A DNA stretch of 64,000 nt from Aurelia coerulea. Lineage: Eukaryota; Cnidaria; Scyphozoa; Semaeostomeae; Ulmaridae. A model generated the notes under the pieces. It saw only the letters and a list, made by a program, of their open reading frames with translations. It did no database searches and was not told the DNA's origin. Position numbers and translations under genes: made by a program. This document shows, in pieces, positions 23,701 through 64,000 of the stretch (its first letter is position 1; the number at the start of each line of letters is the position of its first letter). Location of the stretch: assembly GCA_039566865.1 (NCBI GenBank), contig CM076943.1:43036663-43100662 (forward strand), given 5' to 3'.

Positions 23701-26700
23701 TGAGAGATGGATGTTCAAAAGACATAGAGAAGTTTGCAGATCTACTTGATGTTCTTGTGGTGAATCGACTGGAGAGTGGACGTCACGACGAATTGGGAAA
23801 TGGGTCTCCAGGAGCGGATCCAGACAGGATTCACAGGTTTCAAAAACCCGGTCAGATAATTCGTGAAAATAGACTCCCATTTTCACAAATATATGGTTTT
23901 CTGCAAGTCGATTGCCAATGAGATTCCCTTCCAAACGATTTCTTGGTGATTGCGGTGGCGCCTTTTTATGGATGTGAAGTGCGATCTTTGAAAAGGGAGG
24001 CAAATATTGGCAAACATGTGGTGAACGAATTACTGCATACAGACATGATACTGGCCCTTGTTTTGCCCTTTGACTTGTTTCGCGGAAACAAAAGCAAACG
24101 GATTAGATAAGTTTCCTCTTCAACAATGGAGGATTTATCCAGCCGCGTCAGTATCTGTTGGATTGCACAATTGCATCCATTCATAAAAAGTCTGAAACCT
24201 CTCATCGACGAGTCTGAAACCGGTCACCGCATTGTTCTTGCTGTCGTAAGAGAGTCTGAAACCGGTCACCAAAAGTCGCAAACCAATCAGAAAAAGTCCG
24301 AAACCTGTCTATGTTGTGCAATACACGCAACTGCTGGACTGTGATGAAAAATAGGTGATATCCGTGATCTTTTCCTGCCAAATACAAGCAAATAAAATGG
24401 ATGGCAAAGAAGTGCGATCTTGCTTCGAGACGTTAGAAGCCGTTGAAAAGAGTAACAGGGAGCTTCTTGAACGAAAGGTTGAAGAGGGGAGAGAGGGGAG
24501 GGGAGAGAGGTAAGTTTGTTTTTAAAGGAAAGGATCTGAACCAATGAACTCTACACTGATTCAATCCCAATGCTCGATGAGAATGAATATATTGCGTCAG
24601 GGTGTGTCCACATGGCAGAGGGCGTTCCCCTAAGGAAAAAGGGCGTTGGCCAAAATAAAAAGGGCGTGGTCCCAAAAATTTTCCGGGGCTTCGCCCCCGG
24701 ACTCCCAATAAACCCTGTCACCATAATTCCTGGATCCGCGCCTGGTCTCCCTACATCAAGCTACTGAAGAAACTTCAAGAAACGCTGCTGACCCAGTACA
24801 ATCGATGGATCTTTGAGAATCGAAGAAGAGAATGCGTTGAAACACTGAAGATGTGGGTAATTCAAGAATCTGAATTCTACACAGTTGCAAGAGAGACAGT
24901 GCATGGTGTATCAAGCGAAAGGCGAAATAGTGGATCAAGAAACTTTGCAGGAGAGAAGAAAACCACATTCTTTGGTGCTACTGAAGATAGACAACAAGTG
25001 AATCGTTTTCAAGTAGGTAAATCAGGTGTCACTGGTGGAAAGTATGGTAAGCAGCGGCTGTGCAAAGTGTGCAATGGTAGACATGGAGTATGGGCATGTG
25101 ATGCTTTTCGAAACATGGACATTCGACAGCGATGGAATGTGGCAAAGCAATTCAAATTGTGTTTTCGTTGCCTTGGTGATGACCACAGTGGTAATCAATG
25201 TACTCGAAAGTAGAGTGTGTGATATTCGTGGATGTCAGGAAACACACAACAAGTTGCTACATAGCATGGGTAACAGGATCACTGGCAAGCAAACCAGCAA
25301 TGAAACAAGGATGCCAGAAGCTTCCAATCAACAATCAGTCAGCAGTAGCAGTCAGCAACAGTTGTCGTCGTCAGCCACGGAGGGGGAGCATTTGCAGAGG
25401 AATTTTGCAACACAAACAACGATGGTGTGCTCACAATCAGATGTCAAAGGAGCAACAGCATTGAGAACTATTCCGATTATTTTGAAAAATGGCTGTCGAA
25501 GATTGAAAGTGAACGCACTTCTGGATGATGCCAGCACTCAAACGTATGTGAATGAAGATGTTGCAGCAGAACTTGGTCTCAATGGTACCTTTGAAACAAT
25601 AAAGGTCAATGTTTTGAATGGGGATTGCAAGTCTTTTCAAACCATGCCTGTCGAGTTTGGACTTGAAAGTGTAAATGGCAATGTTGACATCAGAGTGAAA
25701 GCACTTACTGCAAAGAGAGTAACTGGAAACATGAAGGTCATCCAATGGTGACAGCATGCAGATAAATGGCCTCATTTGAAGCACATCGATTTTCCAGACA
25801 CAGGTTTGAGACCTATCGTGGATTTGCTGATTGGTATTGACTACCTTGACCTGCACTATTCTTATGAAGAAGCCAGGGGACAAGAAGGAGAGCCCATTGC
25901 CAGACGAACGCCATTGGGGTGGACATGCGTAGGATGTCCAGAAGGCAAGAACATCCCTGATGCTCATACCAATTTCAGCAAGACGACTTTGTTTACTACA
26001 AGCAGATCTGATGTCGATGAAATCAACTCAACAATGAAGAAGTTTTGGGATATCGATTCAGCTGGGACGTTCACTCAGACAACAGTGGTGGATCCTGATG
26101 AGAAGGCTGCATTGAAAAAAGCTGAGAATTCTTTCAGGTTCATTGATGGTCGATATGAAGTTGGAGTACCATGGAAAGAAGACAGTCATAGAATGGTGAA
26201 CAATCACAAAATGGCGATGAAAAGACTTCAGAACACCGAGAAACGTTTGCTCAAGAACCCAGATGTGATGAAGGCATACGATGAAGTCATTGATCAATAT
26301 TTGGACAAAGGATACATACGAAAGGTTCCAGTCTCTGAGAAGCAACCTGACAGCAAGTGGTATCTTCCTCATTTTGCTATCTTGAAGCCCAACAAAGCGA
26401 CCACCAAGATCAGAATCGTCTTTGATGCTTCAGCAAAGTATGAAGGGACATCCTTGAATGACATGATACATTCAGGCCCGAAACTGCAACGAGGATTGTT
26501 TGATGTTTTGCTACGATTCAGATGTCATCCCGTCGCTGTTGTCTGTAACATTGCTGAAATGTATTTGAGGATTCAGATTCCAGAAGCTGACCGTGTGTAT
26601 CATCGATTTCTTTGGAGAAGATGTGACCAGGACAGAGAACCAGAGGAGTATGAATTCAGCCGAGTGGTGTTTGGTATAACAAGTTCACCGTTTCAAACAC

Positions 26701-29700
26701 AGTTTGTGATTCAAAAGCATGCTCAGTTGTACAGATCAGAATATCCGATGGCTTCAGAAACTGCACTCAAGTCAACCTACATGGATGACAGCATGGATTC
26801 AGTACAAGATGACGAAAAGGGAATTCAACTCTATCATCAACTTGCAGCTCCATGGAACAAGGCAGGCATGCATGCAAGAAAGTGGCTCTCTAATTATCCA
26901 GAAGTTCTCTCTGCAATCCCAGTAGAAGACAGAACGTGGGAAATTGATTTGGACAATGGAGAGCTTCCAACTGTAAAGACTCTTGGAATTCTTTGGCGAG
27001 CAAAAGAGGACATTTTCAGTTTTCACTCAAGCCCACCTGAAGAAAATCAAATCATCACGAAGAGATCGTTTCTGAGAACTATTGCAACATTGTTTGACCC
27101 TCTTGGTTTCTTAGCACCATTCATCGTTAGAGCAAAAGTGGTAATGCAGGAAATCTGGCGACAAGGTTTCGATTGGGATGATGAGCTGGATGGTGAAGTC
27201 AAGTCAAAGATTCAGAGTTGGTAGAGGCCTTCACGAGTTGTCAAATTTTTCAGTGCCAAGATGTCTTCACACTGGCAAGCATAAAGATGTTCAATCAATG
27301 CAATTACACGTTTTCAGTGATGCATCAGGAGAAGCTTATGGAGCTGTTGTTTATGCGAGGTATGTCTACGTTGATCACCCAGCTACTACCACTATTGTCG
27401 CAGCGAAGTCACGTGTTGCACCACTGGCAGCTATGAGCATTCCAAGGATGGAACTAATGGGAGCAGTCACAGGACTTCGATTGGCGGTATCTGTAGCGAA
27501 TGCATTGCAAGTGTCAGTGAAGCAAGTCAAATTCTGGTGCGACAGCATGAACAGACTTTGGTGGATCAGAGGACATAGCAGATGTTTCAAGCCATTTGTT
27601 GCAAATGGTGTTGGTGAGATTCAAAGCATAACAAGCCCTGAGCAATGGAGATATGTTCCCACAAAGGATAATCCTGCTGATCACTTGACAAGAGGGATGG
27701 TAGCATCTGCGTTGGCAAGCAGTGAGCAATGGTGGAAAGGACCAGAATTCTTACAAATGGCTGAGGATGAAAGGCCTAAAAATCAATTTGAGATGTCAAA
27801 AGAAGCAGTAACGGAGCAGAAGAAGTCTGGTCACTCAAAGATGAAGTCCGTAACAGAAAATCATGAAGAGAAGCAATCATTGTTTGCTGATGCAGTAAGC
27901 AAAAAGAAATCTACGACTGGTGAACCAGTGGAGAATAAACTGATGAAAGCGGGCAAGGAGAATTCTTGGTATTTGGATCCTTCTCATTTTTCAAGCTGCC
28001 TTCGACTTACAAGACTTGTAGCATGGGTTTGCCGTTTCTTGGACAACTGTCGAACAGCAAAAGAAGAAAGAATTCATGGAGAATTGACACATGAAGAGAT
28101 CAAAGATGCAGAAATTCACATCATTCGAGACGTGCAGCAAGATGCATTTGCAACCGAATACCAGCAACTATTGAAAGGAAAGCAAATGAAGAGTGACAGC
28201 AAATTGATTGCTTTACAGCCACGAATCGATGAAGATGGACTTCTACGTTGTAATGGAAGATTGAGGTATGCTGACTTTCTGCCATACGATGCAAGATATC
28301 CTATCATTCTACCAAGGAAGAACTGGGTTACAAAGCTGATCGTGAAATTCTATCATGAAAAGGATCATCATACAGGTGGAACGAATCAGACATTGGCAGC
28401 TATTTCGAGTCGTTTTTGGATAATTTCAGCAAGAAATTATGTGATGGGTGTGTTTTCTTGATGTGACGTTGAAGATATCACAGGATGAAGGATTTTCAGT
28501 TGACATGCATAGCTGTCAAGGAAGGGGAGGATGTTCAGAAGACAAACAATCGATACACTCATTTTTGTAATTGTCCGTTGGGACAATACTTGTTTTTCGA
28601 AAAACCTGTTTACGCGTTTAGAAACAATAGTTGTTTACGCAAAGTTGTTTTTAATTAAAGTTGTTTACCAAAAATCGGACAAAAGGTGTTTTTGCCAAGA
28701 AAGTTGTTTGCGTTAAATTGGACAATGGTTAGTTAATAGATAGTGTTAATGAGTCTTTAGAGGACAGTATTTATTAATGCCTTGCGTAATGGACAATGAA
28801 ACTAGTGACAATATTTTGAAGTTGTTTCGTCGTTAGAACAGTATAAATTAGGTTCGTATTCGTAGTAAGTTAGTTAGTTTTTAGCCTTCGGGCTGAAAGG
28901 ATCAAAAGTCGCGGACGGTCTTCCAAACAGTGAACTACCCATGATTTTTGATTTTCTCATATGAACATTAAGTCAGATGAAGAAAACCTATTTAATCTCA
29001 TTTGCTTCATAATTCTGCCTTCAGAAAATCATAATTTGCAGGACAATTTTTCGCTCTGATGACACAGAAATATATTCTGATACCAGCTCCCTGAAAAAAC
29101 TCCAAAAATTTGACAGCCTAAGTTTGACCTTCATTCAAAAATGAGGTTACTGATCTAAGAATTTCATTGGGATTTGATGAAGCAAGTATACCTATCGACA
29201 TAGAAAGGATAAATGGCCATCACTGTGAAATTAGAATATTGATAATTGTCATAGATTTATAACTATTTTTGGTTTTATTTCTGGGTGGAGGTTTCAGGGC
29301 AAAGTGAACTACTTTGAAAATAGTGTTTCTCTTTGTGGTGATTTGGTATTTATATGTAATATAGTATTTTCCAAGTATATTCCCATTATTGTTAATCGAA
29401 TTGTATTCAGGTCTTGCAATCTGACTCGAATTTGTGACTTTAACAATATTTTTTGGTTAATATTTCATCTGCAAAGATCGTTCTTAACGTAGGTCACCGT
29501 TTAATTTTTTTAAATATCATTTTTGTGAAATTTTTGGGTTTATTTCGTTTTTGCATGAGAAGAACTCCTTAGAGTTGCAAAATTAATCATGTTTTCGGGT
29601 TTTACGAGCATCATCTTGGTTTTATCGAACAATTGCTAAGTAGTTCACTTCACCCCGGCCTGGGGTAAAGTGAACTAGGCAGAGCGGTCGCCAAAGAAAG

Positions 29701-38700: not shown

Positions 38701-41700
38701 AAAGATTGTTGAGTGTAGGACCATATTACAAGGACGATATGAGAAGTGAATCGGGCATCGGTCGAAAGATTTGTAGAAGGGGAGTTTGAAAACTGAAAGT
38801 ATTTTCCGCGTTTCAGGTAAGAAAAGGAGGCTTTTGTTCCCTGAAAGTTCTAACAATCTTCTTGTTTCAACCCGTATCAACATCATCGGAGAGCCTATTT
38901 CCACCCGACTTCAAATCTGCAATCCAACTTCTCGTGAATTGCATCATTTTTGTAATATTTACCAAAGATAAAACCCTAGTGGTATAGTGGCCTTTACTTT
39001 TTCAAATTAACCTAGTGTAACTCGTATTTTGACAAATTTTCTGTTACCTATCTGTTGAATATGACAAATAGCCTTAGAAGCACATGATACCAACATGCAT
39101 CCTTCAAATTTCAATTCAGAGGGATTTTGCTCTCAGATTATGTATGATTGATGTTGGTGCAATTTGAAACAAAATTTTGCAAGAATTCCTAGGCAAGCCC
39201 CCTTCTTTCATTTGTCAGCTGAAAACATTTTTTGATCCATCATAGTCCTAAAATTAGATCAGTTGAAATATTTGAGCCCCAACGTACGTTCACAAGACGA
39301 ACACGCAAAAAGGACGAATCCTCCTGCATATTATGAGGTTTGCTATCATGAGTTGATCTTTAGGCCATTACACAATTTTGCATAGCACCAAATATGTGTT
39401 CAAGAAATATTAAAGGGAGTGAGCAAAGCATAGGTTCCAAATCTTTAAAAAGGCTGGTGTAAAATTGAGTGACCTATGCGTAATCACGCAAGGAACCAAC
39501 ATTGTAAGGGGGAGGGGGGGAGAGCTGAGCAAAAATATGTGATTTTTTTCAAGAGTTTTGGCAAGGATTGTCCGAGAGGGCAATTTTTGAAAAAGTTCAT
39601 CAATCTGAACCAAAATTGGCACAGGTGTACAGTTTTGTGTACTTATCAACATGCAGGTGTAAAAAATTATCTCAAAACGTTTATGATGAAATTATGACGT
39701 CATCGATATGAGAAATGAAGGAATTGCAGGGCTCTTACGGAAATGATGGAGTTATAACTGCAGGAAACTTGTCACGTGACGGGAAATACTTGCAATACAT
39801 GGGGAAAAGAGTTTTACGCGTGTTCTCATGGAAAGTGGCAAAGTACACCAAAAACATAGGTCTAACGGCGTGTACAACTTCCATAAAATAGTGGTCCCCT
39901 GCAATTCATAGGAAATGGGTGAAAGATGTAGGTAAAAGTGGAGCATTTATGCAAGGTTCTTCCATGGTGGCACTGGAACGGGCTGCGTCACGATTAGTTT
40001 GTGATGTCAGATTAGTGCGTGTAGAAAAGTTAGCTAATAATACGTTAAACGAAGGAGAGAGCTATCAGTTTTAAGAAAGATGGCTAAAAGTGCGGTAAGG
40101 AAAACGAAAGCGATAGATCCGAAAATTCGAGCCATGGCCTATGTTCTGCGGAGAAATGGCACGAAAATGGCAACGATTGCGAAAAAATTGCATATCTCCG
40201 TGGCAGCAGTGTATCGGTGCTGGAAAGATGGTGAGCTCTCTTGCAAGGGTGAAAAGCGGGAGAAGATCTGTAAAGGCGGTAGGCCAAAGAAACTATCTGC
40301 AAGAACAAAGGCACGGTTCATACGGCAATTTTCAAAAGCAAGGGAGAAAAATGTGAATGTAAAAGTGATGGATGTGGTTAAAGAAGCAGAACTTCAAGGG
40401 CTAGCAAGCTACCGCACATTTGCTCGTATTTTGAACTGTGCAGGATTTAAACATCTGCAGCCAAGGAAAAAAGGTCTCCTATCGTGCAAAGACAAGCAGG
40501 CAAGACTGCAATATGCCCGGAAGATGCTAAGGAAACACCGCAGTAGTTTCTGGACCGAGGACATTGCCATGTATTTAGATGGGGTGTCTTTTGTTCACAA
40601 ATTTAACCCATTTCGTGACGCAAAGACACCAAGTGGGAGGGTGTGGAGGAAAGCAAGCGAAGGATTGCAATGGACGACGAAAGGGAGCAAGAATTTGCCT
40701 GGGGGGCGTCGTGTATATGTGCTGGTTGGAATTAAATTTGGAGTGGGGGTAACATTGGTGAAAACTTACAAGCACATGACTGGGAAATACTTCGCAAATT
40801 TTGTAAAAAATGACCTTGAAAAGGCTCTGAAAAGAGGCAAGGTGAAAGACAGAAAAGCTAAGGGCATGAAGTATTTTGTAATGGACAACGACCCCTGTCA
40901 GAAAAGTGCTGCTGCTAAGTCTGCATTGAAAGAAATTGGAGCAAACGTCGTAGAAATCCCCCCACGATCACCTGACCTCAACCCAATCGAAAATGTTTTC
41001 CACAATGTTCGCCGTGAGTTACGGAAACAGGCCCTGGAGCAGACACTTGTCCACGAAGATTTTGCAGCATTCGAGAAACGTGTCGTTGCGACCCTGCATA
41101 ATTTTAGTCGTCAAGTCATTGACAGAACAATTGAGAATATGGACACACGATTGAAAGCCATAGTTCAAAACAAAGGCTATAGAACGAAGTATTGAATTTT
41201 AAATGAACATTTTGTATAACGAGATATTTACATAGCATTATTTTCTCTTCATGTATCGTAATCTTTTGTTTATGAACAATTGTTTATGAGCTAAATGATG
41301 CGTTTAATGTCGTAACGTCTCACTGTACACGTAATGAGCCTTCTGGTGTAAGGTTTCACGATTGACACATCGATTGACAGGCGTACGTTTCAACCCTTTC
41401 GCCCCCCGGAGACTGCTCTTTCTAAAAATATTTGTTACAGAGGGGTGTTCATTATCGTAACCTATCTGCTGGGCTCATTGGTAAACGCCTATTAATAATG
41501 AGTAGCGCAGAAAAGTGGGCTGTAACGATTGACACAGCACTGGTAAAAAGATATTTGATGCTCAAGTTCTTTTTAGGAAAATAGGTTGACACTTGTTATG
41601 AGCCCTGTAACTTTGGCGTACGCCAAATTGTAAACTATCTGAGGATGTTAGTACACTGTTTACGTCTTTGAACAGTTGAGAAGCTGAAAAGAAGCTAACT

Positions 41701-44700
41701 TGCACAATTCAACATCGAATTAAAGGAAGATTCCTTCTACTGTCAATCGTTGTGTCAACCGTTGTGTTACTTGTTGCCTCAATTTTGGGGAGCATTTTCA
41801 TGCGCCTGTGCAGTTGAAGTCACATGACCGTCCAGCAAGAAATGGGAGAAGCAGTACGCGCATGGCTGAATGCACTTTTGCTTCTCAATTTCTATCTGAT
41901 GACGGAATTCAATGTGTCTCCAACGCACGCGCATCATTTCACTCTCTCGGTCATCAATGGAACCTCCCTTTACATACAAAATTGGCCCTTTAGACGTGCA
42001 GAATACTGGGGTATCACTTTCAAGAACTATGTCCTTTGCAAAATGAGTTTTGGGTGTAGACAAGTGCATTGGTTGTCCCTCTAAAAGAAGAAGGAGATCT
42101 GCCCAGGGTATTATGATTGGATTAAATCTGAAGTCATTGAATATTATAACTTCGGCAGTCTCCACACCCATTAGTGCATAGGTGCATGTAGCTGGATTCA
42201 CAAAGCATTTATATATTATTCGTAGCGGATCAAGAATAAATGTCTTTCCACAATTGGCTGGTCCAGTTATAAGGATGTTACGTCCCTTTCCGCGCCCCTT
42301 TTCCAACAAATCGACAAAAGCATTCTTGAATTTCCCAGCATCCATGTGATTGAGCTGCAAGATCTCCTCTGCACACTCACGCCATTCTCCGTTACAAACA
42401 CAATCAGCATTTAATGCATTATTCAAAATATCCATTCTTGATTGTCGCGCTCTCTCTATATTCTCTTCCGCAGTCTCAATTGCCCACACCGTCTCTATCA
42501 GTTCAGACACCGCCTTCTCTGATTTTGCAAGCAAGAAATCATACAGCAATGCGTCCCCTTTCCTCTGTTTGGTGTCTTTTGCAAGTGCCATTAGTTCCAG
42601 CCTCGATCTGACGTTTTCGTTCAAAATAAGATCGGCTACATCCTTGTTTGTATAACGTGTAGCTTTGGCTTTACGTCGTTTCTTTGCACTGCTGGCTCTC
42701 AATGTTTTAGGCGGCTGTATCTTCTTTGGATGGCCTGGACTACACACGAAATGTTTATCGTACTTTTTTGCATATTTATATGCAGTAAAATAGCATTTGT
42801 GTCCTGAAAAATGGACGCTGATGCCGTGTGTTTTTCCAATGTGCTCCTTCACCTTCTTCCAGCGCCTCTGCTTTCCTAGCAATATGGCTAAATGGAAATG
42901 TTTCCCGCCATCTTTGTGTTCTTCCATGCTGCAAGCCCATTGCTTTACGTCTACAAGCCCTGTTACTTGGAACGCACTCACAACTACAGCTGCAAATGAC
43001 TGGCGATCAAATCTCTTGACATTTGCACGACTGTATGTGACTAAATATACTTTTCTTGCACAAGTAGGTTGGAACACCGCGGCAAATTCAATGTCCTGTT
43101 CGTCATTCCCCCCTTCACACTCAACTTCAACTTCATTTGTTTCCACATCTATCGACTCTTGAAAAGTATTGGACGCCATTTTCCCAATAATTTACTTCAA
43201 ACTGTCCTCTCATTCGGCAGTTTAAGAATCGTTTACCCTTTTATTCCCGAGTTTTTCTGTATTTAACGAAAATGATTGAAACTTAATGACTTTTCTTATA
43301 ATTGCATGGCCATAATGAAAATGTATACTGTGACCTCATCTCTTCAATTTTGATCTCGCCAACCCACATAGCATCTAACTATACGTCATTCATAAAGTGT
43401 CCCTATTCATGTATCAATACAGTTCTAATCCAGGCATTTGATTGCACCTTTAATTGCTCCTTAGGGGCCAATAACAAGTACAAATATAATTCTAATTGTG
43501 CTCATTGTCTAGAATGATGAAATTCAAATTTGTAACTAATTGGAAAGCCCACTGTTCTCTTAAAATTGAATTATGACGTAGATTTCAACCATGCTATCAA
43601 GGAATTGTGAAAATGGGTATAATATGACGTCACAAATCCAGAACCCTAACAAATAACTGTTTTTTTCCTTCAGTTTCGTGATCTACACTATCGAATTACC
43701 CTGCAGCGCAAAAATCAGCTCAAACGACTGACTTTTAGAAATTCACCCCTTCAGACAATCCTTGCCAAAACAACTTGAAAAAAATTTCATTTCTCTCTTT
43801 TCTTCTCCGACCAAGCATCCAAAATACAGTGCAGGAAACTTCACGCTACTCTTTTCCCTTGCCCCCCTGCCCCCCCCTGAACAATGTTGGTCCGAAGCAC
43901 TGATCACCAGATATCACGAAAATCGCTTTGGCTGCGTTGTTGTGCCCTTGAGAAATGCGTAATCACGCAAGGAACCAACATTGTAAGGGGGAGGGGGGGA
44001 GAGCTGAGCAAAAATATGTGATTTTTTTCAAGAGTTTTGGCAAGGATTGTCCGAGAGGGCAATTTTTGAAAAAGTTCATCAATCTGAACCAAAATTGGCA
44101 CAGGTGTACAGTTTTGTGTACTTATCAACATGCAGGTGTAAAAAATTATCTCAAAACGTTTATGATGAAATTATGACGTCATCGATATGAGAAATGAAGG
44201 AATTGCAGGGCTCTTACGGAAATGATGGAGTTATAACTGCAGGAAACTTGTCACGTGACGGGAAATACTTGCAATACATGGGGAAAAGAGTTTTACGCGT
44301 GTTCTCATGGAAAGTGGCAAAGTACACCAAAAACATAGGTCTAACGGCGTGTACAACTTCCATAAAATAGTGGTCCCCTGCAATTCATAGGAAATGGGTG
44401 AAAGATGTAGGTAAAAGTGGAGCATTTATGCAAGGTTCTTCCATGGTGGCACTGGAACGGGCTGCGTCACGATTAGTTTGTGATGTCAGATTAGTGCGTG
44501 TAGAAAAGTTAGCTAATAATACGTTAAACGAAGGAGAGAGCTATCAGTTTTAAGAAAGATGGCTAAAAGTGCGGTAAGGAAAACGAAAGCGATAGATCCG
44601 AAAATTCGAGCCATGGCCTATGTTCTGCGGAGAAATGGCACGAAAATGGCAACGATTGCGAAAAAATTGCATATCTCCGTGGCAGCAGTGTATCGGTGCT

Positions 44701-47700
44701 GGAAAGATGGTGAGCTGTCTTGCAAGGGTGAAAAGCGGGAGAAGATCTGTAAAGGCGGTAGGCCAAAGAAACTATCTGCAAGAACAAAGGCACGGTTCAT
44801 ACGGCAATTTTCAAAAGCAAGGGAGAAAAATGTGAATGTAAAAGTGATGGATGTGGTTAAAGAAGCAGAACTTCAAGGGCTAGCAAGCTACCGCACATTT
44901 GCTCGTATTTTGAACTGTGCAGGATTTAAACATCTGCAGCCAAGGAAAAAAGGTCTCCTATCGTGCAAAGACAAGCAGGCAAGACTGCAATATGCCCGGA
45001 AGATGCTAAGGAAACACCGCAGTAGTTTCTGGACCGAGGACATTGCCATGTATTTAGATGGGGTGTCTTTTGTTCACAAATTTAACCCATTTCGTGACGC
45101 AAAGACACCAAGTGGGAGGGTGTGGAGGAAAGCAAGCGAAGGATTGCAATGGACGACGAAAGGGAGCAAGAATTTGCCTGGGGGGCGTCGTGTATATGTG
45201 CTGGTTGGAATTAAATTTGGAGTGGGGGTAACATTGGTGAAAACTTACAAGCACATGACTGGGAAATACTTCGCAGATTTTGTAAAAAATGACCTTGAAA
45301 AGGCTCTGAAAAGAGGCAAGGTGAAAGACAGAAAAGCTAAGGGCATGAAGTATTTTGTAATGGACAACGACCCCTGTCAGAAAAGTGCTGCTGCTAAGTC
45401 TGCATTGAAAGAAATTGGAGCAAACGTCGTAGAAATCCCCCCACGATCACCTGACCTCAACCCAATCGAAAATGTTTTCCACAATGTTCGCCGTGAGTTA
45501 CGGAAACAGGCCCTGGAGCAGACACTTGTCCACGAAGATTTTGCAGCATTCGAGAAACGTGTCGTTGCGACCCTGCATAATTTTAGTCGTCAAGTCATTG
45601 ACAGAACAATTGAGAATATGGACACACGATTGAAAGCCATAGTTCAAAACAAAGGCTATAGAACGAAGTATTGAATTTTAAATGAACATTTTGTATAACG
45701 AGATATTTACATAGCATTATTTTCTCTTCATGTATCGTAATCTTTTGTTTATGAACAATTGTTTATGAGCTAAATGATGCGTTTAATGTCGTAACGTCTC
45801 ACTGTACACGTAATGAGCCTTCTGGTGTAAGGTTTCACGATTGACACATCGATTGACAGGCGTACGTTTCAACCCTTTCGCCCCCCGGAGACTGCTCTTT
45901 CTAAAAATATTTGTTACAGAGGGGTGTTCATTATCGTAACCTATCTGCTGGGCTCATTGGTAAACGCCTATTAATAATGAGTAGCGCAGAAAAGTGGGCT
46001 GTAACGATTGACACAGCACTGGTAAAAAGATATTTGATGCTCAAGTTCTTTTTAGGAAAATAGGTTGACACTTGTTATGAGCCCTGTAACTTTGGCGTAC
46101 GCCAAATTGTAAACTATCTGAGGATGTTAGTACACTGTTTACGTCTTTGAACAGTTGAGAAGCTGAAAAGAAGCTAACTTGCACAATTCAACATCGAATT
46201 AAAGGAAGATTCCTTCTACTGTCAATCGTTGTGTCAACCGTTGTGTTACTTGTTGCCTCAATTTTGGGGAGCATTTTCATGCGCCTGTGCAGTTGAAGTC
46301 ACATGACCGTCCAGCAAGAAATGGGAGAAGCAGTACGCGCATGGCTGAATGCACTTTTGCTTCTCAATTTCTATCTGATGACGGAATTCAATGTGTCTCC
46401 AACGCACGCGCATCATTTCACTCTCTCGGTCATCAATGGAACCTCCCTTTACGTACAAAATTGGCCCTTTAGACGTGCAGAATACTGGGGTATCACTTTC
46501 AAGAACTATGTCCTTTGCAAAATGAGTTTTGGGTGTAGACAAGTGCATTGGTTGTCCCTCTAAAAGAAGAAGGAGATCTGCCCAGGGTATTATGATTGGA
46601 TTAAATCTGAAGTCATTGAATATTATAACTTCGGCAGTCTCCACACCCATTAGTGCATAGGTGCATGTAGCTGGATTCACAAAGCATTTATATATTATTC
46701 GTAGCGGATCAAGAATAAATGTCTTTCCACAATTGGCTGGTCCAGTTATAAGGATGTTACGTCCCTTTCCGCGCCCCTTTTCCAACAAATCGACAAAAGC
46801 ATTCTTGAATTTCCCAGCATCCATGTGATTGAGCTGCAAGATCTCCTCTGCACACTCACGCCATTCTCCGTTACAAACACAATCAGCATTTAATGCATTA
46901 TTCAAAATATCCATTCTTGATTGTCGCGCTCTCTCTATATTCTCTTCCGCAGTCTCAATTGCCCACACCGTCTCTATCAGTTCAGACACCGCCTTCTCTG
47001 ATTTTGCAAGCAAGAAATCATACAGCAATGCGTCCCCTTTCCTCTGTTTGGTGTCTTTTGCAAGTGCCATTAGTTCCAGCCTCGATCTGACGTTTTCGTT
47101 CAAAATAAGATCGGCTACATCCTTGTTTGTATAACGTGTAGCTTTGGCTTTACGTCGTTTCTTTGCACTGCTGGCTCTCAATGTTTTAGGCGGCTGTATC
47201 TTCTTTGGATGGCCTGGACTACACACGAAATGTTTATCGTACTTTTTTGCATATTTATATGCAGTAAAATAGCATTTGTGTCCTGAAAAATGGACGCTGA
47301 TGCCGTGTGTTTTTCCAATGTGCTCCTTCACCTTCTTCCAGCGCCTCTGCTTTCCTAGCAATATGGCTAAATGGAAATGTTTCCCGCCATCTTTGTGTTC
47401 TTCCATGCTGCAAGCCCATTGCTTTACGTCTACAAGCCCTGTTACTTGGAACGCACTCACAACTACAGCTGCAAATGACTGGCGATCAAATCTCTTGACA
47501 TTTGCACGACTGTATGTGACTAAATATACTTTTCTTGCACAAGTAGGTTGGAACACCGCGGCAAATTCAATGTCCTGTTCGTCATTCCCCCCTTCACACT
47601 CAACTTCAACTTCATTTGTTTCCACATCTATCGACTCTTGAAAAGTATTGGACGCCATTTTCCCAATAATTTACTTCAAACTGTCCTCTCATTCGGCAGT

Positions 47701-50700
47701 TTAAGAATCGTTTACCCTTTTATTCCCGAGTTTTTCTGTATTTAACGAAAATGATTGAAACTTAATGACTTTTCTTATAATTGCATGGCCATAATGAAAA
47801 TGTATACTGTGACCTCATCTCTTCAATTTTGATCTCGCCAACCCACATAGCATCTAACTATACGTCATTCATAAAGTGTCCCTATTCATGTATCAATACA
47901 GTTCTAATCCAGGCATTTGATTGCACCTTTAATTGCTCCTTAGGGGCCAATAACAAGTACAAATATAATTCTAATTGTGCTCATTGTCTAGAATGATGAA
48001 ATTCAAATTTGTAACTAATTGGAAAGCCCACTGTTCTCTTAAAATTGAATTATGACGTAGATTTCAACCATGCTATCAAGGAATTGTGAAAATGGGTATA
48101 ATATGACGTCACAAATCCAGAACCCTAACAAATAACTGTTTTTTTCCTTCAGTTTCGTGATCTACACTATCGAATTACCCTGCAGCGCAAAAATCAGCTC
48201 AAACGACTGACTTTTAGAAATTCACCCCTTCAGACAATCCTTGCCAAAACAACTTGAAAAAAATTTCATTTCTCTCTTTTCTTCTCCGACCAAGCATCCA
48301 AAATACAGTGCAGGAAACTTCACGCTACTCTTTTCCCTTGCCCCCCTGCCCCCCCCCTGAACAATGTTGGTCCGAAGCACTGATCACCAGATATCACGAA
48401 AATCGCTTTGGCTGCGTTGTTGTGCCCTTGAGAAATGCGTAATCACGCAAGGAACCAACATTGTAAGGGGGAGGGGTAGTTCTTTGAACTGAATGACTTC
48501 AAAGAAATTTTAGCTAATTCTCAATAATTCTACCGTTGGAATTTTCTGATATCTTCAATATTTTCAGAATTAGAGTGTTTTTCTTCTTTTTCAAGAATTC
48601 AAGGAAACTTTTCCAAAAAACTTAAAACCATCGTAATTTGCAAACATAACATGAAATAATTTCGAAGGAAACCATAGTTCATAAATGCCTACAATGTGGT
48701 GTCAAGCAAAAGTCTGTCACTCATCTGGTTTATGATTTAGAAATTTGATGACGTCACATCCTCAAATGAGTTGAAATGTAAGATACACTGTAATTTTGAA
48801 AAATATTCAGAATTTCTGGAAAGTCCAACGGTAGATTTATGGATAAGTATCTAAAGTTTCTTTCAAGCCATTCGATCAGAAGAAATAGGTCATTGAATTT
48901 TACACCCACCTTTTTAAGCCGAGATAAAGATTTGGAACCTATGCTAGTGAGCAATGGTGTATATGCTTCTCTATAAATGAAATAAAAAATACACTCAGAC
49001 ACAGCTTTGTATTTTTGGCTTTCAATTGTTGACAGAAGGTGTGGGGCATCAATTTGAATAGGCTATTTTTAGATTTTTCTGCTCTTTGCAAATGCAAGCT
49101 TTTAACCTTGCACAAACCCTTTAAAGGGATTGTGCAGTGCTAAAAGCTTGCATCTGCACAAAGAAAAACAATCTGAAAATATCCCATTCAAAATTGAAGT
49201 TGCGCACGAGCCATGAACAGTGGATAGCCAAAGAAAGAATGATTTGTCTGAGCGATTTGTTCGTTCTATTTATCGACAAGCCTTTTCACCAATGCATGTT
49301 CCCTTATACTTTTTTTGAAGAATAAAATCATTTGACTTGAAGTGTGTGTAAACAAAACCTTGCCCCATGATTGGGTCTGTTTTTCTTGGTATCTCAAAGT
49401 GATCACATGATTTGAAAGACGTCTCTTGATTGGCTAGATTCCATTCAACATCGCTAAAGGAATGAACAATTTCGTTCGCTCTCGTTGAATATCTTACAGG
49501 CAGTTTAGAAACAAACACATACACACGATGAAACGCTTGTCAGCCACACTGTCGACACACATGCTGCCAAAGATTTTGACCCATGTGTAATCATCACAAA
49601 TGATTCTTTTTACTTTACAGATGTGCTACGGATACCACAGTTCAATTCATTTCTGCGACACCATCACACAAGATGAGATTCAGCTTCGTGTCATTCAAGT
49701 TCTACATGTATGCGCAAGTTTATCTCCATTGTCAAATTCTCATGTGTGGCATGCAATCATCTGACTCTCGCTGCATATCTGGCTGTCAAGGAAACAATAT
49801 TAAAAGAAATCGAAGATCGGTATCGCTGGTATCAGAGGAAGCAGGATTGATGTCATGGGGGAGGAAGGATAGCGAAGAGCAAGAAGTAAAGAATCCTCTA
49901 CTTTCAAATACATACAATCTCAATATTGGACCCTTTGTAGAAAGCAAAAATACATTAACTGGTAAGCCGTTTATTTATCAACGAAATTTTTAGTCTGAAA
50001 TTCGTTTCATTAAATTGTCTATTCACCAGCGATGATCCACTCGTTTCTTGATGGGAAGGGAAGACAAAAGTAACAGAATTTTTAACAAATCAGTTGCCTG
50101 GCTCTCTTTTCTGCATCCGTGTCGATCAATTTGAATGAGAAAGATAACTAAATTCACCATTTTGCACCTGTGTGAATTCTTCTTCAAATTTTCTTGCTGG
50201 TAAATAAATTCATGATGGCCTAAGCAGCATAAACCGGGGATGGATTGCAAAAGAAACAAAGCAAAACAAAGCAAAACAATGTTGTATGCAGAGTTTATTC
50301 AAAGTCAAATTGATTAACAGAGATGCAGATATGAGAGTTGGCATGGCTAACAAATTTTGCTATTCTTGTCTTCCCTTCCCAAAAAATCGATGCACCTTTG
50401 CCCATGGTCTTGTATGCATAGTCCAGTTTCGGATGAGGAACTCAATTCTCTAAAAGTTTTTCAAAGCGACGAGGACTCGCGGCGGGACGTACTTAGTGTA
50501 TTCATCCAACAGGGATGTTTTCACTTTTTTTCTAGCACTGTGTTCGACTGATGACATTCGTCTAAGTTTTGCTCCATTGAATTGAATTATTATATACTGT
50601 TATTGTTTTTGAATCGGAATTGTGTGGATATTTCGCTACATTGGTTCGTTGCTCAGTCCAATTATTATACTGTGAAGTACCTGGTGAGTCAGAAAACAGA

Positions 50701-56840: not shown

Positions 56841-57431
56841 AGTTATCAAGGAAAGTCATGTTCTTTACAAAAAGAAACGCATTCCTGCATGTCTTCGATC
56901 AATGCAGGCATTTCAGCAAACATGAAGAAGTCAACCTTTATCTTCAGCTTTCGAGGAAACCCAAAAGGTGATCTCACTAAAGTACACCAAGGAGCTGGAT
57001 GGGCGCTTTTTCGTCTGTATACTTCCTGGGAATACTTTAAACCCACATTGATATGTTAAAGTTGCTTCATTCTTCGCAAGTTTAGCATGCACTCAAATTT
57101 GTGTGTCTTCTCTAAAACAGGGGGTGCTCTCTCCTCGATTAGATTATCCATTGAGAGAGCCCCCTCCTTATATTAAGAAATTCCCTGCATACAATTTTGT
57201 TTTGTTTCTATCGCCTATATTATAAGCATTTATATTTATCTTGATTTACATTGTTATTTACATATGACTGATTATAAACTTGTTTGCATATGGTGGAATT
57301 TTTAAAATGAGAAACTGAACGAAACTGACGGGGTTGATTCAAGGAATAAACCAACAAAGTACGTTGTTTCCATAATCTGCCTTTAGATAAGATGCGTTTA
57401 TTCTCTGCTGCATAATTCTCAGGAATTTCAG

Positions 57432-57809
57432 CATGAACGATAGGACACCAAATGTGAAAGTTTTATTGGTAGCGGGCCACCTTAAAATTAGTTGACGGAG
57501 ATAAATAGCCACCTCCGGGCCTGCATATACAGGGAGCTGGGCAAGCTAAAAATAGATCTTGTTTCTTAGCCAATGAAAATTGAGAACTCTTGTCGTGATC
57601 ACCACTTTCAGGTGATCAGGCTTTCATGAGGTTGATGATTAAGGTGGATCTGCACTTAAGGTGGCTCATTACTGAAAATTTCAAAATGACGAAGCAGCGA
57701 TAAGGTGGCTCACTTCCAAGTGAAAATTAGGCAAAAACACACACAAAACAATTGGTTAAGATGGCTCACTACTAATAAAACTTCACACTTTATGTCCTAT
57801 CACTCATGC
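57432..57809. repeat. Copy of the ATAGGACACC MITE, split from 11632 family
   Basis: Ends GCATGAACGATAGGACACC (about 57431) and GTCCTATCACTCATGC (closing 57809) are inverted. Inside are the family blocks TGAAAGTTTTATTGGTAG, GGATCTGCACTTAAGGTGGC and GCGATAAGGTGGCTCACT. The central part (about 57490-57630) is unrelated to the 11632 copy. The BEL LTR begins three bases after the right end. Confidence 0.7.
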
Positions 57810-57811
57810 TT

Positions 57812-58240
57812 TGTCAAAAAAGGTGCGCTTATTTTTAATCGAAGGTATAAAGAACTGCTCCATAAACAACTCACAAGTAGAATTGGTAGGCTCTCATAAG
57901 GTTTCTCATCATCTCATCAGGTTTCTAAGGCTCTCTTCTAGTGCAACGAATAACTAATAAAAACTATTTACAATATGTATAAGTAGAGGACTGTATATAA
58001 TATTCTCTCCATGGAAGATGTTGTAGTAAAGGCTCGAACTTCTTAATATTTATTTTATCACTTGTTTAGGCTCAAACTCCAAGATTCATATCGCGTGTTT
58101 TCTTCAGACTTTAGGCTCGGAAATCATGCCCCTATTCAGGCAAAGAGATTTATTTACAGCCCCCTACACGTAAGCCAATATCAATATTTACGTAAGTTAA
58201 TCTAACCCGGGGGTCATCACAAATTACAGTTTATCTCACA
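57812..58240 (-). repeat. 3' LTR of the minus-strand BEL element
   Basis: 429 bases, starting TGTCAAAAAAGG and ending TTATCTCACA on the plus strand. On the element strand the LTR is preceded by the purine tract AGGGGGGAG (58241-58249 complement), the polypurine primer. Confidence 0.9.
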
Positions 58241-58252
58241 CTCCCCCCTTGA

Positions 58253-58975
58253 TCAATCTGGGTCTGATTGATCAACAATAAGTCTACGCAACAAGTCAGC
58301 ATTCTGCGCTGCTAGCCTTCTAGGGGGTCTAGCAGGCTTCTCTTCCAGAATCACTTCATTGTTCTCTTCATCAACTGGTAAGGAATGAATGTTCTTACCT
58401 TGCTCCTTGTGATTTACCTCAATCGGGAACAATGACTGAATTGGTCTTCTAAGTCTTGTAAGTGTCCCTCTGTTGTTGACAACTCTAACCTTAGCACCCC
58501 TGATTTCTTTGTCTTTACTGGGAATCAACTCCTCCACAACTGCTACTTTCCACTCTCCTCTGCAACAATTTGGATCTTTTACAATAACAATGTCTCCAGA
58601 ATCAATGTTTCTTCCCTTTTCATTGACCTCTCTCGAATGATGGTGTTCTCTCAAACTCAGTAAATATTCGTTACTCCAGCGTCGCCAGAAATGTCCTAGA
58701 AGTGTGCGTAGATAACGAGCACGCTTCTCTACAACACTGGCGTCATATTCATCTTCTTCATCAAACTCGTCTTGACTTGGGAGTGTAAGAATGCGTCTCC
58801 CAATTACAAGATGAGCTGGAGTTAAGGGTTCTTCAAAGTCCTCAGGGTTGAGATATGCTAATGGTCTGGAATTTATTGTCCCTTCCACTTCTGCTATGAC
58901 TGTCGTCAGCTCCTCAAAGTCCAATCTGGCTCTTCCAAGAATCTTGCGCAGCAACCGCTTCATCAATTGTACCAT
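58253..58975 (-). pseudogene. BEL integrase C-terminus and DUF5641
   Basis: Begins just after an in-frame TAG (58984-58986) that replaces the tryptophan of the family's WGGYYER-type motif. The glutamate of YYERMVQL is the third catalytic residue of the integrase. Then follow INSRPLAYL, the DUF5641 part (LTPAHLVIGRRI, FWRRWSNEYLLSLREHH) and a tail ending LIVDQSDPD. The frame is the same as 58997-60415, so one base change separates them. Confidence 0.9.
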
Positions 58976-58996
58976 ACGTTCGTAATACCCACCAAA

Positions 58997-60415
58997 CTAT
59001 GCCGCTCTCTCTAAGATGAATCTCCAAATTATTTTCTTGTGTGCGACGAACCTCTGAACTTCTTGGGCTTCCAAGATTTTGCCGATTTCTTTGTTTGCGT
59101 TCTTGAAAGTCTTTGCATTATCTGATGTAATTCTCCATGGTAAACCTCTTCTTGCAATAAATCTTCGTAGACATCGAATAAACGCAGCTGTTGATAAATT
59201 AGGTACCACTTCAAGATGAACTGCACGGCTTAACGAGCATGTAAACAAGCAAACATAAGCTTTCTGCATTCCTGCTGTTGTCTTGATGTACAATGGGCCT
59301 GCAAAATCGATTCCGACATCGCAAAATGCTTTTGAACCTTGAACTCTTCCCTCTGGTAAATCAGCAGGTTTTGGCACTCTGTAAGACTTCCCTTGCAACA
59401 CTCTACAAATCATACAACCATGGATCAATTTTCGCACTAATTGTCTTCCTTTAGGTACCCAATAATTGGCTCTTACTTCCGTGAGCGTGTCCTTGACTCC
59501 ACCATGAAACACGTTCAGATGACTATGCTCGACAATCAGCTTAGTAATGTAATGATCCCTTGGTAACAACACAGGAAACTTCGAAGTAAACGGCAAACTA
59601 GATCTGCTAATTCTTCCTCTGCATCTAACAATGCCATTATCCACAAACAAACCAAGCTGCCCCTCTAACTTATGGTAATAATCTTTCTTTCCCTTCAAAT
59701 CTTCCTGTACATCTTTGATCCACAATTTCTCAGCTTGTAAAATATCTTCTGCAACAACCATTGACGAAAGAACAGATTTTTTCAACAGCTTAATAAACTT
59801 CAGCACCAATGCAGTAACTCTAAGCAGCTTTCTCCAAGTACTAAATCTTGTACAATCAATGATGCTTGATAAACGACAATTGCTTTCTTCTGGTCCAATC
59901 AACAATGATGTAACTTTCTTTGGCTGCAATTTAACTTCCTTCTGACATTCTTCTAAGATTTCTTCTTCAGCTACATTTTCTGACATAGAATAACACTCTG
60001 GTGGTCCTCTAAGCCAAGTAGGACCGTCCCACCACAACGAATTATCCGCAATATCAGATGCAAAACAACCCCTGGAACCAAGATCTGCAGGGTTCTCAGT
60101 CCCAGGGCAATGTCTCCACGAATTAATTCTTGTTAACTCCACAATCTCCTTTCTTCTGTTGTACACAAAGTGCTTGTATTCTTTGTCAGATTTAATCCAG
60201 TACAATACACATTTGCTATCTGTCCAGTAATAAACTCCATCAATGCAAATCACAGGCTGCAATGCTTCTTTTACAGCAGATAACAAACGAGCAGAAATCA
60301 AAGCTGCTAATAACTCCAATCTTGGAATAGACATCTCTGGAACAGATAATGGTGCAAGCCTGACTTTTGATGCAACCAAAACTGATCTCCATCCAGCTTT
60401 AGATTTAAAACACAA
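58997..60415 (-). pseudogene. BEL RNase H and integrase core
   Basis: RNase H parts include SIPRLELLAALISARLL, then YYWTDSKCVLYWI and CPGTENPADLGSRG. The integrase zinc motif has H and H in EHSHLNVFHGGVKDTL and C and C in GCMICRVLQG. The core has the catalytic aspartates in DVGIDFAGPLY and WRITSDNAKTF. The frame joins the reverse transcriptase frame through a one-base shift near 60465 in a GTTTTGG stretch. Confidence 0.92.
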
Positions 60416-61977
60416 ATAAACTGCAGCGCAATAGGCCTTCTTTGAAGCATCTCCAAAACATGCAAATAACTTGACTCGATTTCTTCATCTTTCGGCAAAT
60501 AACATCTTTCAACAGCAATACTCACATTTTCCAGATCTTTCAACCATTTTGCAACAAACTCTTGCTCTCCCTCTGACAGTGGTGCGTCCCAATCATACTT
60601 CTTTCTGCACAAATCTTGGAACAGCAATCTTACAGGAATAATAACTGGCACAATCAGACCCAATGGGTCGAATAACTTGGCAGGAAACCTCAAGATATTT
60701 CTTTTCGTGAGCTGTAAATCTCTTCCAAACTCAGCAAGGTAAGCTAATTTCAAAATGATCTTATCTTCATTCAAATCCCAATTCAAACCAAGAATTTTAT
60801 GCTCCTTTCCAGGCTCAATTTCGCTTAGACCTCCCATTGACATTTTTGCAAACGATATGTTTTCCATCTGATCAACTTCAACTTCAGACTTATCAGCAAT
60901 TTCTCTGTTGTATTCAGCAATCTTTCTTGCAACCTCTTCGTCGTTGGTAGCCCATTTCCGTAAATTGAAGCTTCCAGCAGCTAAACACGATTTTACTGCT
61001 TTGAAAAAATCTACCGCCTCTTCTCCATTTGCTGCCCCGCATGTCCAATCATCGATGTAAAACGCTCTAATAACTTTATCAGCCATTTCGATATTCTCCT
61101 TGTAATACTGCCTGACATGAAAATCCAATGTTGCATTCAAGCAGAACGGCGAGCTAGACATTCCAAACAATACAGACGCAAAACGAAATACAATAATCTT
61201 TGGCTCTTCTTCTTCCGCTTCTTTCAGGTTTTCGATCCACAAAAAACGCATTAAATCTCTTTGATCTTCATCCACAGCAATATTCAAAAATGCTTTCTCG
61301 ATATCCGCAGCTAAGCCAACTTTGTATGCTCGAAATCTCAATAAAATATCAATGATGGCCGGAGCCATAGGTGGTCCTACATACAAACATTCATTCAACG
61401 ATGGTAAGGACTTTTCCTCCTTCGAACTAGCATCGAAAAAAACTCGTAACTTTGTCGTAAGTGCATCTTGCCTCTTCACTGCTTGATGGGGTAAGTAATG
61501 GATGTTTCCAGGTTCTGTTTCTGCAGATAAATCAACTCTCTCAATAATACCATCTCTCTCTTGATCTCGAATGATTTTGTCATACGCCTCGAGTGTTTCT
61601 GGGTCTTTGCGAAGACGTTTCAATGAAGATTTCAAACGGGCAAGACTCAAATTGTAATTGTCCGGTAACAAATCGTGGTTTTCTTTAACAGGCAATCTTA
61701 CGCAATATTTGTCACCATCCTTCGATATGTTCTCGATAAACGATCCATGCACTGTGTCTTTCTCTCTTATTCCAACTGACTCAAAATCCCACAACTGCTC
61801 GACCATGACATCTACCCTGTTATTTTCAATGGGTTCAGTTCCCGTTCTCAGCACGTGGGTCGATACGAAATTTGCATTAGCCGATAAACCATCATCTTCT
61901 CCACATGGTACTCTGCCAGACAATACCCATCCTAATTTTGTCTCGTGCGCAACTGGACTGTCGCAGTCTCCCCCCAT
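60307..61977 (-). pseudogene. BEL reverse transcriptase
   Basis: Contains the linker HETKLGWVLSGRV, then FFDASSKEEKSLPSLNECL, motif A AADIEKAFLNI with the catalytic aspartate, VLFGMSSSPFCLNATL and the active-site box FYIDDWTCG. RT motifs are intact, in contrast with the plus-strand BEL. It is shifted relative to the upstream protease frame in a run of Gs at about 61970-61975. Confidence 0.92.
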
Positions 61978-62997
61978 TTTAGCTCTCCAGTGAAGAACCT
62001 TCCGAGGTAGTCAGCGCCAATCAACACATTAATAGGACTGTCACATGACCCATCACTGTAATCCGCTAATTCAATGTTACTTACGTAATCGAAATGTTCA
62101 ATAGCAGATTGAATGTTCTGTGCTGATATTGGTTCACAAATCTTTGACACTGCATATGCTTGTATTTCTGTTGAAAACTGCCCAGAAATACTGCTCAAGG
62201 AGAATCAATTCATGGGGCGTAACCTTCACGTTGTCAGGATTTCCTCCAAAGGCGTTAATCAATAACGGCTTGATTGCTACCGTTGGCAACGACAATTGAT
62301 CTTTAATGTTCTTGCAAATAAAGCTCCTCTGACTCCCCGAATCGAAAATAACACGTACACGAACTTTCTCATTTCCATCGCAACTAATAAATGCTTGAGC
62401 TGTCTGTAGCAAGATGTTGTCTCGCGAGCAAACATAAAGGGCACTTGATGCTGCCTCTTTGACTTCCGGCCTTTCTTCCGATACAACTGTTACATTCGAT
62501 GGCATGTTGTTGTCACAAATGCTTACATGATGAAGTCTGCCACACTGGAAACATTTTCCCTTTGACTCACATTTCCCTGCAACATGATTCTTTCGCAAAC
62601 ATACAAAACAACGGCCTTGTTTCCGCAATATATCCTTCCGTGCTTTCTTATCGGTGATAATGTTGCAACGAGTAGAGGGATGCTCCTGCCGACAATAAGT
62701 GCAGCTCGATACATTAGATTTTCTCCCCTCTGAATATAACACAGCAGCGGTACTGGGCTGACTAGGTGATCTCTTATCAGGCGAATAACTGTGAGCTTCC
62801 GGGATAAACGATGGCAAATCAGCTTGAATACTACCACATCTTTCTCGATTTTCGATCTCTTCTCGTAACAGATCAAGCAAGCGATCAAGATCCCAGCTTC
62901 CATCCTTCATTTGACGACCAATTAATAGACGAACATCTTGTGGAATTTTCTTGAGTAGTACTGGGACAAGAAGGCTTCCATATGCTGATGTTGGCAC
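61932..62997 (-). pseudogene. BEL gag C-terminus, zinc knuckles and protease
   Basis: In the frame 62997-62134, three CxxC-type knuckles are seen (CTYCRQEHPSTRC, CFVCLRKNHVAGKC, CFQCGRLHHVSIC), then a retropepsin with VIFDSGSQRSFI, the DSG triad intact. A frame change near 62190 moves to the frame ending 61932, which carries FSTEIQAYAVSKIC and INVLIGADYLGRFF. The segment follows gag after an in-frame TGA at 63001-63003. Confidence 0.88.
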
Positions 62998-63000
62998 TTT

Positions 63001-63747
63001 TCAAGATTTTAATCCGCGAACATGTACTTCGACCTTGTCGTACAAATTTCTAAGCTCTTTAATGTCTCTCGATGAAAAAACTGGTGGAATGTGAAGTAAC
63101 GCATCATGGTGGCCACTTACTATGACTTGGTTGTCTCCGAATCTTCGTGTAAGTTTTTCAATTGCTTCGTCATAGTTTGCTTCCGTTGTCTGCAACCCTG
63201 CTATGGCAGCTGCAGCTGTTCCCTCAAGCAAATCTCGTAAATAACTGAACTTGGTTATCACATTTAAACTGGGGTCGTCGTGAATGGCACTCTTATAGAT
63301 ATCCCAAAACGTCAACCATTGCGTCACCTCTCCATTAAACTTCTTCAGTTTCAATTTTGGCAATTTTGAAGATGATGAGCTGTCCCTAACACGAATCTGC
63401 GAAGGGATTTCGCGAGAACTTTGCTGCTCCGTTTGAGTTTTCTCTTCGATATTGAGCAACGTTTCATAGACCTTGCGTCTAAATTCTCCCGACTCTCGAA
63501 TCTCTGTCATTAAATCATCTTCATCTTCAGTAAGATCAACGATATCGTCTTCTAAATCTTTAATAATCTCGATTTCCTCCTTTAATGTGATCTTCAACTG
63601 TTTGAGCTTTCGAATTGTGTTTTCATCAAGGTTTTCTAACAACGCAGCGGCCTCTTCCAGCGAACTTTCGACGTAGTTTCGATGGCCTATCCGAATACTG
63701 CATAACTTTGGTAGGCTTTTCTGAGTCTTTTTCTTGGCTTTCGACAT
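63001..63747 (-). pseudogene. BEL gag N-terminus with DUF1759
   Basis: Start ATG at 63747 (MSKAKKKTQKS). An acidic coiled-coil stretch (EEIEIIKDLEDDIVDLTEDE) is followed by the DUF1759 region: LPKLKLKKFNGEVTQWLTFW, then KFSYLRDLLEGTAAAAI and KLTRRFGDNQVI. TGA at 63001-63003 interrupts a frame that continues unchanged on the other side (KVPTSAYG), so only one codon is damaged. Confidence 0.9.
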
Positions 63748-63782
63748 TTCTTAATTTATTTACATCCGGCTCTGTGTGTCCA

Positions 63783-64000
63783 TGTCAAAAAAGGTGCGCT
63801 TATTTTTAATCGAAGGTATAAAGAACTGCTCCATAAACAACTCACAAGTAGAATTGGAAGGCTCTCATAAGGTTTCTCATCATCTCATCAGGTTTCTAAG
63901 GCTCTCTTCTAGTGCAACGAATAACTAATAACAAACTATTTACAATATGTATAAGTAGAGGACTGTATATAATATTCTCTCCATGGAAGACTTTATAGTA
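63783..64000 (-). repeat. 5' LTR of the minus-strand BEL element, cut by window end
   Basis: Starts TGTCAAAAAAGG on the plus strand like the other LTR and matches it with a few substitutions and an added base near 63932. The primer-binding site on the element strand would start TGGACACACAGAGCC (63782 leftward); I do not recognise the tRNA. Confidence 0.88.

What the first reader, a model, noticed from the sequence alone, without database searches (positions are those of the whole stretch)
39477..48476. A transposon-replicon hybrid: DD34E transposase plus CRESS-type Rep, integrated as a tandem dimer
Seen: two head-to-tail ~4.48 kb units, each with an intact DD34E transposase and an intact HUH/SF3 Rep, convergent. 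Known: Tc1-like enzymes cut and paste at TA; Rep proteins replicate circles by nicking an origin hairpin. Inference: the element may excise or circularise, amplify by Rep-driven rolling-circle replication into concatemers, then reintegrate at TA using its transposase. I do not recognise this as a standard named transposon superfamily. It may be a previously undescribed group or a little-known one.
Basis: partly seen in the sequence, partly recalled or inferred. Interest (0 to 1): 0.95.

Follow-up and report, generated by a model that had tools for sequence, protein, structure and literature searches.

The report
Jumping gene carrying virus-like replication protein
This is a mobile DNA element that encodes both a cut-and-paste transposase and a virus-type replication starter, sits in the genome as two copies in a row at one insertion site, and has relatives in corals and sea anemones, suggesting a transposon that may copy itself as circles before it integrates.

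Summary
Window 39477-48476 (9,000 bp) holds two head-to-tail 4,479/4,480-bp units plus 41 bp of a third, differing by three substitutions and one C-run indel. Each encodes an intact 371-aa DD34E transposase and, convergently, an intact 466-aa HUH + SF3-type Rep. The whole block sits at one TA: the joined flanks match the other arm of the inverted repeat it interrupted, implying a TA duplication. Bipartite inverted repeats enclose both genes. Homologues of both proteins are numerous (346 Rep, 595 transposase hits). Exact contig-length matches put both on one contig in at least two clear short cases, and their trees split alike. The four organism-named relatives are anthozoans. Rep relatives were not confirmed in IMG/VR or prokaryote genomes, nor transposase relatives in IMG/VR. 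Best reading: a DD34E transposon whose Rep replicates circular or concatemeric copies that the transposase inserts at TA. TA insertion is fairly well supported; replication is inferred from Rep, the terminally redundant array and candidate Rep sites. The host genome could not be searched. A broken Rep-plus-transposase element from truffle is published (PMC3198968), so I rate this a new variant of a known kind.

The parts
39475..39476 (.). left TA of the target-site duplication
   Evidence: flank joining against the other inverted arm
39477..43955 (+). unit 1 (4,479 bp)
43956..48435 (+). unit 2 (4,480 bp, one extra C)
48436..48476 (+). 41-bp partial third copy; makes a 41-bp direct terminal repeat with 39477-39517
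48477..48478 (.). right TA of the target-site duplication
40080..41195 (+). DD34E Tc1/mariner-type transposase, unit 1 (371 aa)
   Evidence: DDE_3 5.7e-14; Mos1 and Sleeping Beauty folds; DD34E
41779..43179 (-). HUH + SF3 helicase Rep, unit 1 (466 aa)
44559..45674 (+). transposase, unit 2 (one N240D difference)
46258..47658 (-). Rep, unit 2 (identical protein)
39495..39534 (+). left outer inverted-repeat block (partner 43852-43891)
43852..43891 (-). right outer inverted-repeat block of unit 1
39543..39593 (+). left inner inverted-repeat block (partner 43733-43783)
43733..43783 (-). right inner inverted-repeat block of unit 1
39477..39490 (.). 5-bp-stem hairpin TGCGTaatcACGCA at the insertion's left edge; the pattern recurs at 43956 and 48436 and nowhere else in the window
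41358..41762 (.). candidate iterons: 4 CGATTGACA and 2 GTTGACA copies, in both orientations, between the convergent genes
41612..41627 (.). perfect 16-bp palindrome TTTGGCGTACGCCAAA in the same intergenic region
   Evidence: seen in the sequence printed

Best explanation
An autonomous two-gene DNA transposon. Step 1 (fairly supported): a Mos1/Sleeping Beauty-type DD34E transposase acts on the bipartite inverted repeats and inserts the element at TA. Step 2 (inferred): a Rep with a geminivirus-like HUH nuclease and a parvovirus/papillomavirus-like SF3 helicase recognises repeated motifs or a hairpin in the element, nicks it, and drives rolling-circle-type replication of a circular form into head-to-tail copies. 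Step 3 (inferred from this locus): a terminally redundant dimer (2 units + 41 bp) entered one TA as a single block. Rep would thus supply copy number that a cut-and-paste transposase lacks, and the transposase would supply integration that a replicon lacks. No third long ORF of capsid size was seen, so it is a transposon rather than an evident virus.
Against: No second copy, circle or junction read was seen. The outermost ends are direct repeats, so it is unclear where the transposase cuts; the outer inverted blocks start 18 bp (left) and 64 bp (right) inside the unit edges. Outer and inner blocks do not resemble each other beyond chance. No CRESS nonanucleotide was found. Motif C lacks the Asn I recall as usual for SF3. 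The iteron and hairpin tests were chosen after looking; at 7-mer level the count was reached in 33 of 500 shuffles, and ten comparable 5-bp stems exist in the unit. A second stretch, at the Rep 3' end, folds almost as stably as the junction.
Confidence: 0.55

Rival explanations
1. A DD34E transposon with a passenger Rep. A monomer with 41-bp terminal redundancy inserted once; the dimer arose later by unequal crossing-over or replication slippage, so Rep-driven concatemers are not needed.
For: Two near-identical units in tandem are equally expected from a recent duplication in place.
Against: The 41-bp terminal redundancy still needs a circular or multimeric source or another special event. Rep active-site residues are conserved in nearly all of 120 homologues, which argues for use.
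Confidence: 0.25
2. An endogenous ssDNA-type virus or capsid-less replicon that took up a Tc1-type transposase for integration, rather than a transposon that took up a Rep.
For: Rep folds like viral Reps. Viruses with borrowed transposases exist, such as vespertilioviruses (PMC6668415, passage) and Teratorn (PMC10175614, passages).
Against: No capsid-sized third ORF in the unit (a spliced gene is not excluded). No relative was confirmed among 54, 25 and 117 pattern matches in IMG/VR. 32 of 120 Rep and 37 of 119 transposase homologues list a contig of 100 kb or more, as chromosomal elements would.
Confidence: 0.12
3. Chance neighbourhood or nested insertion: an ordinary Tc1 element and a separate endogenous Rep, duplicated together.
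For: The window is rich in other mobile elements. One short inverted pair (41591-41605 with 43465-43479, 15 nt, 87%) brackets Rep alone.
Against: That pair is as short as the other chance-level pairs listed, and none brackets the transposase alone, while the strong pairs enclose both genes. Both genes occur on one contig in relatives, with matching trees.
Confidence: 0.04
4. The dimer is an assembly artefact joining two alleles or copies.
For: Only 3 substitutions and a C-run indel separate the units.
Against: There is a single clean TA site and a direct unit-unit junction; a 41-bp partial third copy would not follow from joining two alleles.
Confidence: 0.04

Closest known systems
Tc1/mariner (IS630) superfamily DNA transposons
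   Same: DD34E catalytic core, DDE_3, Mos1/SB fold, TA target duplication
   Different: 4.5-kb unit with a second gene (Rep); terminally redundant head-to-tail dimer; inverted blocks not at the outermost ends
Geminivirus-like transposon of Tuber melanosporum (Liu et al. 2011, PMC3198968; passages and section 8 read)
   Same: Rep-like gene and transposase genes in one repeated element
   Different: There: fungal, broken ORFs, 37-bp TIRs, no obvious TSD, transposase type not stated in the section read. Here: intact genes, DD34E, TA duplication, tandem dimer; the four organism-named relatives are anthozoans
CRESS-DNA virus Reps (geminivirus, redondovirus)
   Same: HUH motifs I-III and fold of residues 38-157
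   Different: helicase closer to parvovirus/papillomavirus SF3; motif C Lys; no capsid-sized ORF seen; no relative confirmed in IMG/VR
Parvovirus NS1/Rep and the parvovirus-like repeats of acorn worm, Hydra and planarian (PMC3198968, section 8)
   Same: SF3 helicase fold (the repeats themselves were not compared here)
   Different: geminivirus-like nuclease, transposase present, no coat-protein ORF seen
Helitrons
   Same: HUH-encoding eukaryotic mobile elements
   Different: Helitrons use a Rep fused to an SF1 helicase (PMC6213432, passages) and have no DDE transposase (recalled); here there is a DDE enzyme and a TA duplication
Teratorn (piggyBac-herpesvirus fusion, PMC10175614, passages)
   Same: cut-and-paste transposase joined to a viral replication system
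   Different: 180 kb, other transposase and virus families

Membership tests
Tc1/mariner superfamily | DDE transposase with DD34E-type spacing | tested here: met
   157 of 159 aligned sequences have 34 residues between D and E
Tc1/mariner superfamily | transposase of the Tc1/mariner domain families and fold | tested here: met
   DDE_3 above its cutoff; HTH_Tnp_Tc3_2 below its cutoff (27.6 against 31.5); Mos1/SB folds
Tc1/mariner superfamily | TA target-site duplication | tested here: met
   one locus, by flank joining
Tc1/mariner superfamily | terminal inverted repeats at the insertion ends | tested here: inconclusive
   inverted blocks exist but lie inside the edges; the outermost 41 bp are direct repeats
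CRESS-type Rep | HUH nuclease motifs I-III | tested here: met
   YLVTYS, HFH, YxxK; H94 119, H96 120, Y136 120, K139 118 of 120; fold
CRESS-type Rep | SF3 helicase Walker A and B | tested here: met
   K312 119, T313 118, D349 120 of 120
CRESS-type Rep | SF3 motif C Asn (recalled) | tested here: not met
   Lys in 99 and Ser in 15 of 120; Asn not among the six commonest residues printed, which cover 119 of 120
CRESS-type Rep | origin nonanucleotide in a stem-loop | tested here: not met
   four patterns sought on both strands of the array, none found; another origin sequence is not excluded
ssDNA virus | capsid gene | tested here: not met
   per unit, beside the two genes only ORFs of 86, 101 and 121 aa, antisense to Rep, reach 80 aa within the unit; spliced genes not tested
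Tuber geminivirus-like transposon | sequence kinship of Rep and transposase | not tested
   its sequence was not fetched in any call

The most novel reading that the evidence does not exclude
A distinct class of animal transposon that couples true rolling-circle replication by its own HUH-SF3 Rep with DDE-transposase integration at TA, so that a cut-and-paste transposon becomes replicative through circular concatemers.
Probability: 0.4. Interest if true: 0.93.

Novelty: new variant of a known kind. Interest (0 to 1): 0.78.

Why it matters
Cut-and-paste transposons must gain copies indirectly. An element with its own replication initiator would show another route and a direct bridge between DDE transposons and ssDNA replicons. 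Many relatives with conserved catalytic residues, and Rep and transposase that diverge together, suggest that the pairing has lasted, so the idea can be tested in living cnidarians or in a heterologous excision and replication assay.

Tried and rejected
The genome search on the window's own genome failed as busy all 15 times, so copy number and other insertion sites are unknown. Relatives were not confirmed in viral contigs with the Rep alignments A1 and A4 or the transposase alignment A2 (54, 117 and 25 pattern matches), nor in genome contigs with A1 and A4 (44 and 53 pattern matches). The transposase was not sought in genome contigs. Rep alone matched no PDB sequence at E up to 10; its profile gave only weak matches, the best 0.039. 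An IR/DR layout (outer block like inner block) was tested and not supported. The left and right non-coding parts showed no enriched 7- or 8-mer.

Papers: ten searches; a further one was rejected for a sign in a term. Searches returned nothing. No title or abstract start in the listings describes a Rep plus Tc1/mariner element; one search listed 15 of 76 papers. The nearest is PMC3198968. PMC6668415, PMC10175614 and PMC6213432 were read as passages only.

Linkage count: 8 Rep/transposase pairs shared an exact contig length among the 120 listed of 346 Rep hits and 119 of the 120 listed (595 found) transposase hits, one having no contig length. Four of the eight are in the 1-5 kb range, where 1.3 are expected by chance. 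I dropped the 4,631-bp pair (its transposase is only 43% like the window's) and the 2,691-bp pair (both genes would need 2,754 bp). The two Mb-sized matches show only the same contig, not closeness. 38 further transposases from a third search added none. The window plus seven pairs, the 2,691-bp one still in, gave r 0.945, reached by 44 of 40,320 permutations; six pairs without the window gave 0.871, 7 of 720.

Full report
What is there. Window 39477-48476 is a 9,000-bp block made of two head-to-tail units of 4,479 and 4,480 bp and a 41-bp start of a third. The units differ by three substitutions and one extra C in a C-run. Each unit has two long convergent genes: a 371-aa transposase on the + strand and a 466-aa Rep on the - strand, with 583 bp between their stops. 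All four genes are open. The Rep proteins are identical; the transposases differ by one residue, N240D.

How it sits in the genome. The block is flanked by TA on both sides. Its flanks belong to an inverted-repeat element whose other arm lies at about 48769-48945. Joining the flanks with one TA gives a sequence that aligns through the junction to that arm, without a gap at the join; the arms are diverged and have a 10-base gap and several single-base gaps elsewhere. So the whole dimer behaves as one TA insertion with a 2-bp duplication. The unit-unit junction has no TA, which argues against two separate side-by-side TA insertions. The first 41 bp of the block are repeated at its end. Such terminal redundancy is what a circular or concatemeric source would give; this is inference.

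Shared ends. Two inverted-repeat blocks lie at the two sides of the unit, outside both genes: 39495-39534 with 43852-43891, and 39543-39593 with 43733-43783. The inner block scores 32 against at most 17 in 1,000 shuffles; the outer block's score was reached in 2 of 1,000. Of the 16 inverted pairs listed, one short pair (41591-41605 with 43465-43479, 15 nt, 87%) brackets Rep alone and none the transposase alone; a 23-bp pair, 41358/41740, lies within the intergenic region. The outer blocks face each other across the unit junction, and a 170-nt stretch there has the lowest folding energy of 224 windows in the unit (-34.9), though a stretch at about 41776-41945 comes close (-33.2). A 14-nt hairpin sequence marks each unit start and occurs nowhere else in the window; ten 5-bp stems with loops of 3-5 exist in the unit, so this is mild evidence.

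Candidate Rep sites. The region between the genes has four copies of CGATTGAC; an 8-mer count this high arose in 1 of 500 shuffles, a 7-mer count this high in 33 of 500. Six TTGACA sites lie there against 0.66 expected from the window's density; the other two non-coding parts show no such repeat. They resemble iterons, the repeated Rep-binding motifs of known replicons (recalled). The test was chosen after seeing the repeat, so it is a lead.

Relatives. The protein database gives 346 Rep and 595 transposase homologues, and 1,340 in a transposase profile search; 120 are listed each time. The four whose names give an organism are Porites evermanni (Rep), Exaiptasia diaphana and Dendronephthya gigantea (transposase) and Paramuricea clavata (transposase), all Anthozoa. 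Eight pairs share an exact contig length; I set aside two as doubtful. Of the other six, 14,409 and 6,982 bp are convincing for closeness, 4,497 and 3,915 bp likely, and 2,671,645 and 1,663,187 bp show only the same contig. In the window plus these six, Rep and transposase distances correlate at r 0.949 (15 of 5,040 permutations reach it). In ML trees of 43 Reps and 45 transposases, each family splits by one well-supported branch into two groups, and all seven pairs fall on matching sides. Contig lengths of 3.5-5 kb, near the unit size, are listed by 29 of 120 Reps and 28 of 119 transposases; the transposases have a second crowd at 1.5-2.5 kb (30 of 119), which could be fragments or elements without Rep.

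Mechanism. I think it most likely that Rep replicates a circular form and that the transposase places the product at TA. TA insertion of the dimer block is read from this locus; replication is inferred from the enzyme, its conservation, the terminal redundancy and the candidate sites. A monomer with 41-bp redundancy that later duplicated in place is the main rival.

Known or new. A truffle element with Rep and transposase ORFs was published in 2011 (PMC3198968, section 8 read), so the combination has a precedent, though broken, fungal and without an obvious target duplication. Ten paper searches in the open library (listed under tried and rejected) showed no report of an intact Rep plus DD34E element; most subscription journals, bioRxiv and Repbase were not searched, so it may be known there.

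Noticed in passing
22248-28929: BEL/Pao-type LTR retrotransposon: two 400-bp direct repeats 99% alike flank ORFs with DUF1759, RVT_1 and Peptidase_A17 hits; probably young, with its reading frame in several pieces.
   Followed up: partly
57812-64000: Second BEL/Pao-type element on the - strand with 98% alike repeats at 57812-58028 and 63783-64000, reaching the window end.
   Followed up: partly
39427-39476 and 48477-48945: The block interrupts an inverted-repeat element whose other arm is uninterrupted; this gave the internal empty-site comparison.
   Followed up: yes
11268-12468 and 57428-57809: Short related repeats in several orientations shared between two distant places of the window.
   Followed up: no
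8791-9459: Reverse transcriptase fragment (RVT_1), likely a non-LTR remnant.
   Followed up: no
41779-43179 (Rep residues 440-443): C-x2-C followed by F, near-invariant in the Rep family; possible metal-binding half-site, unexplained.
   Followed up: partly
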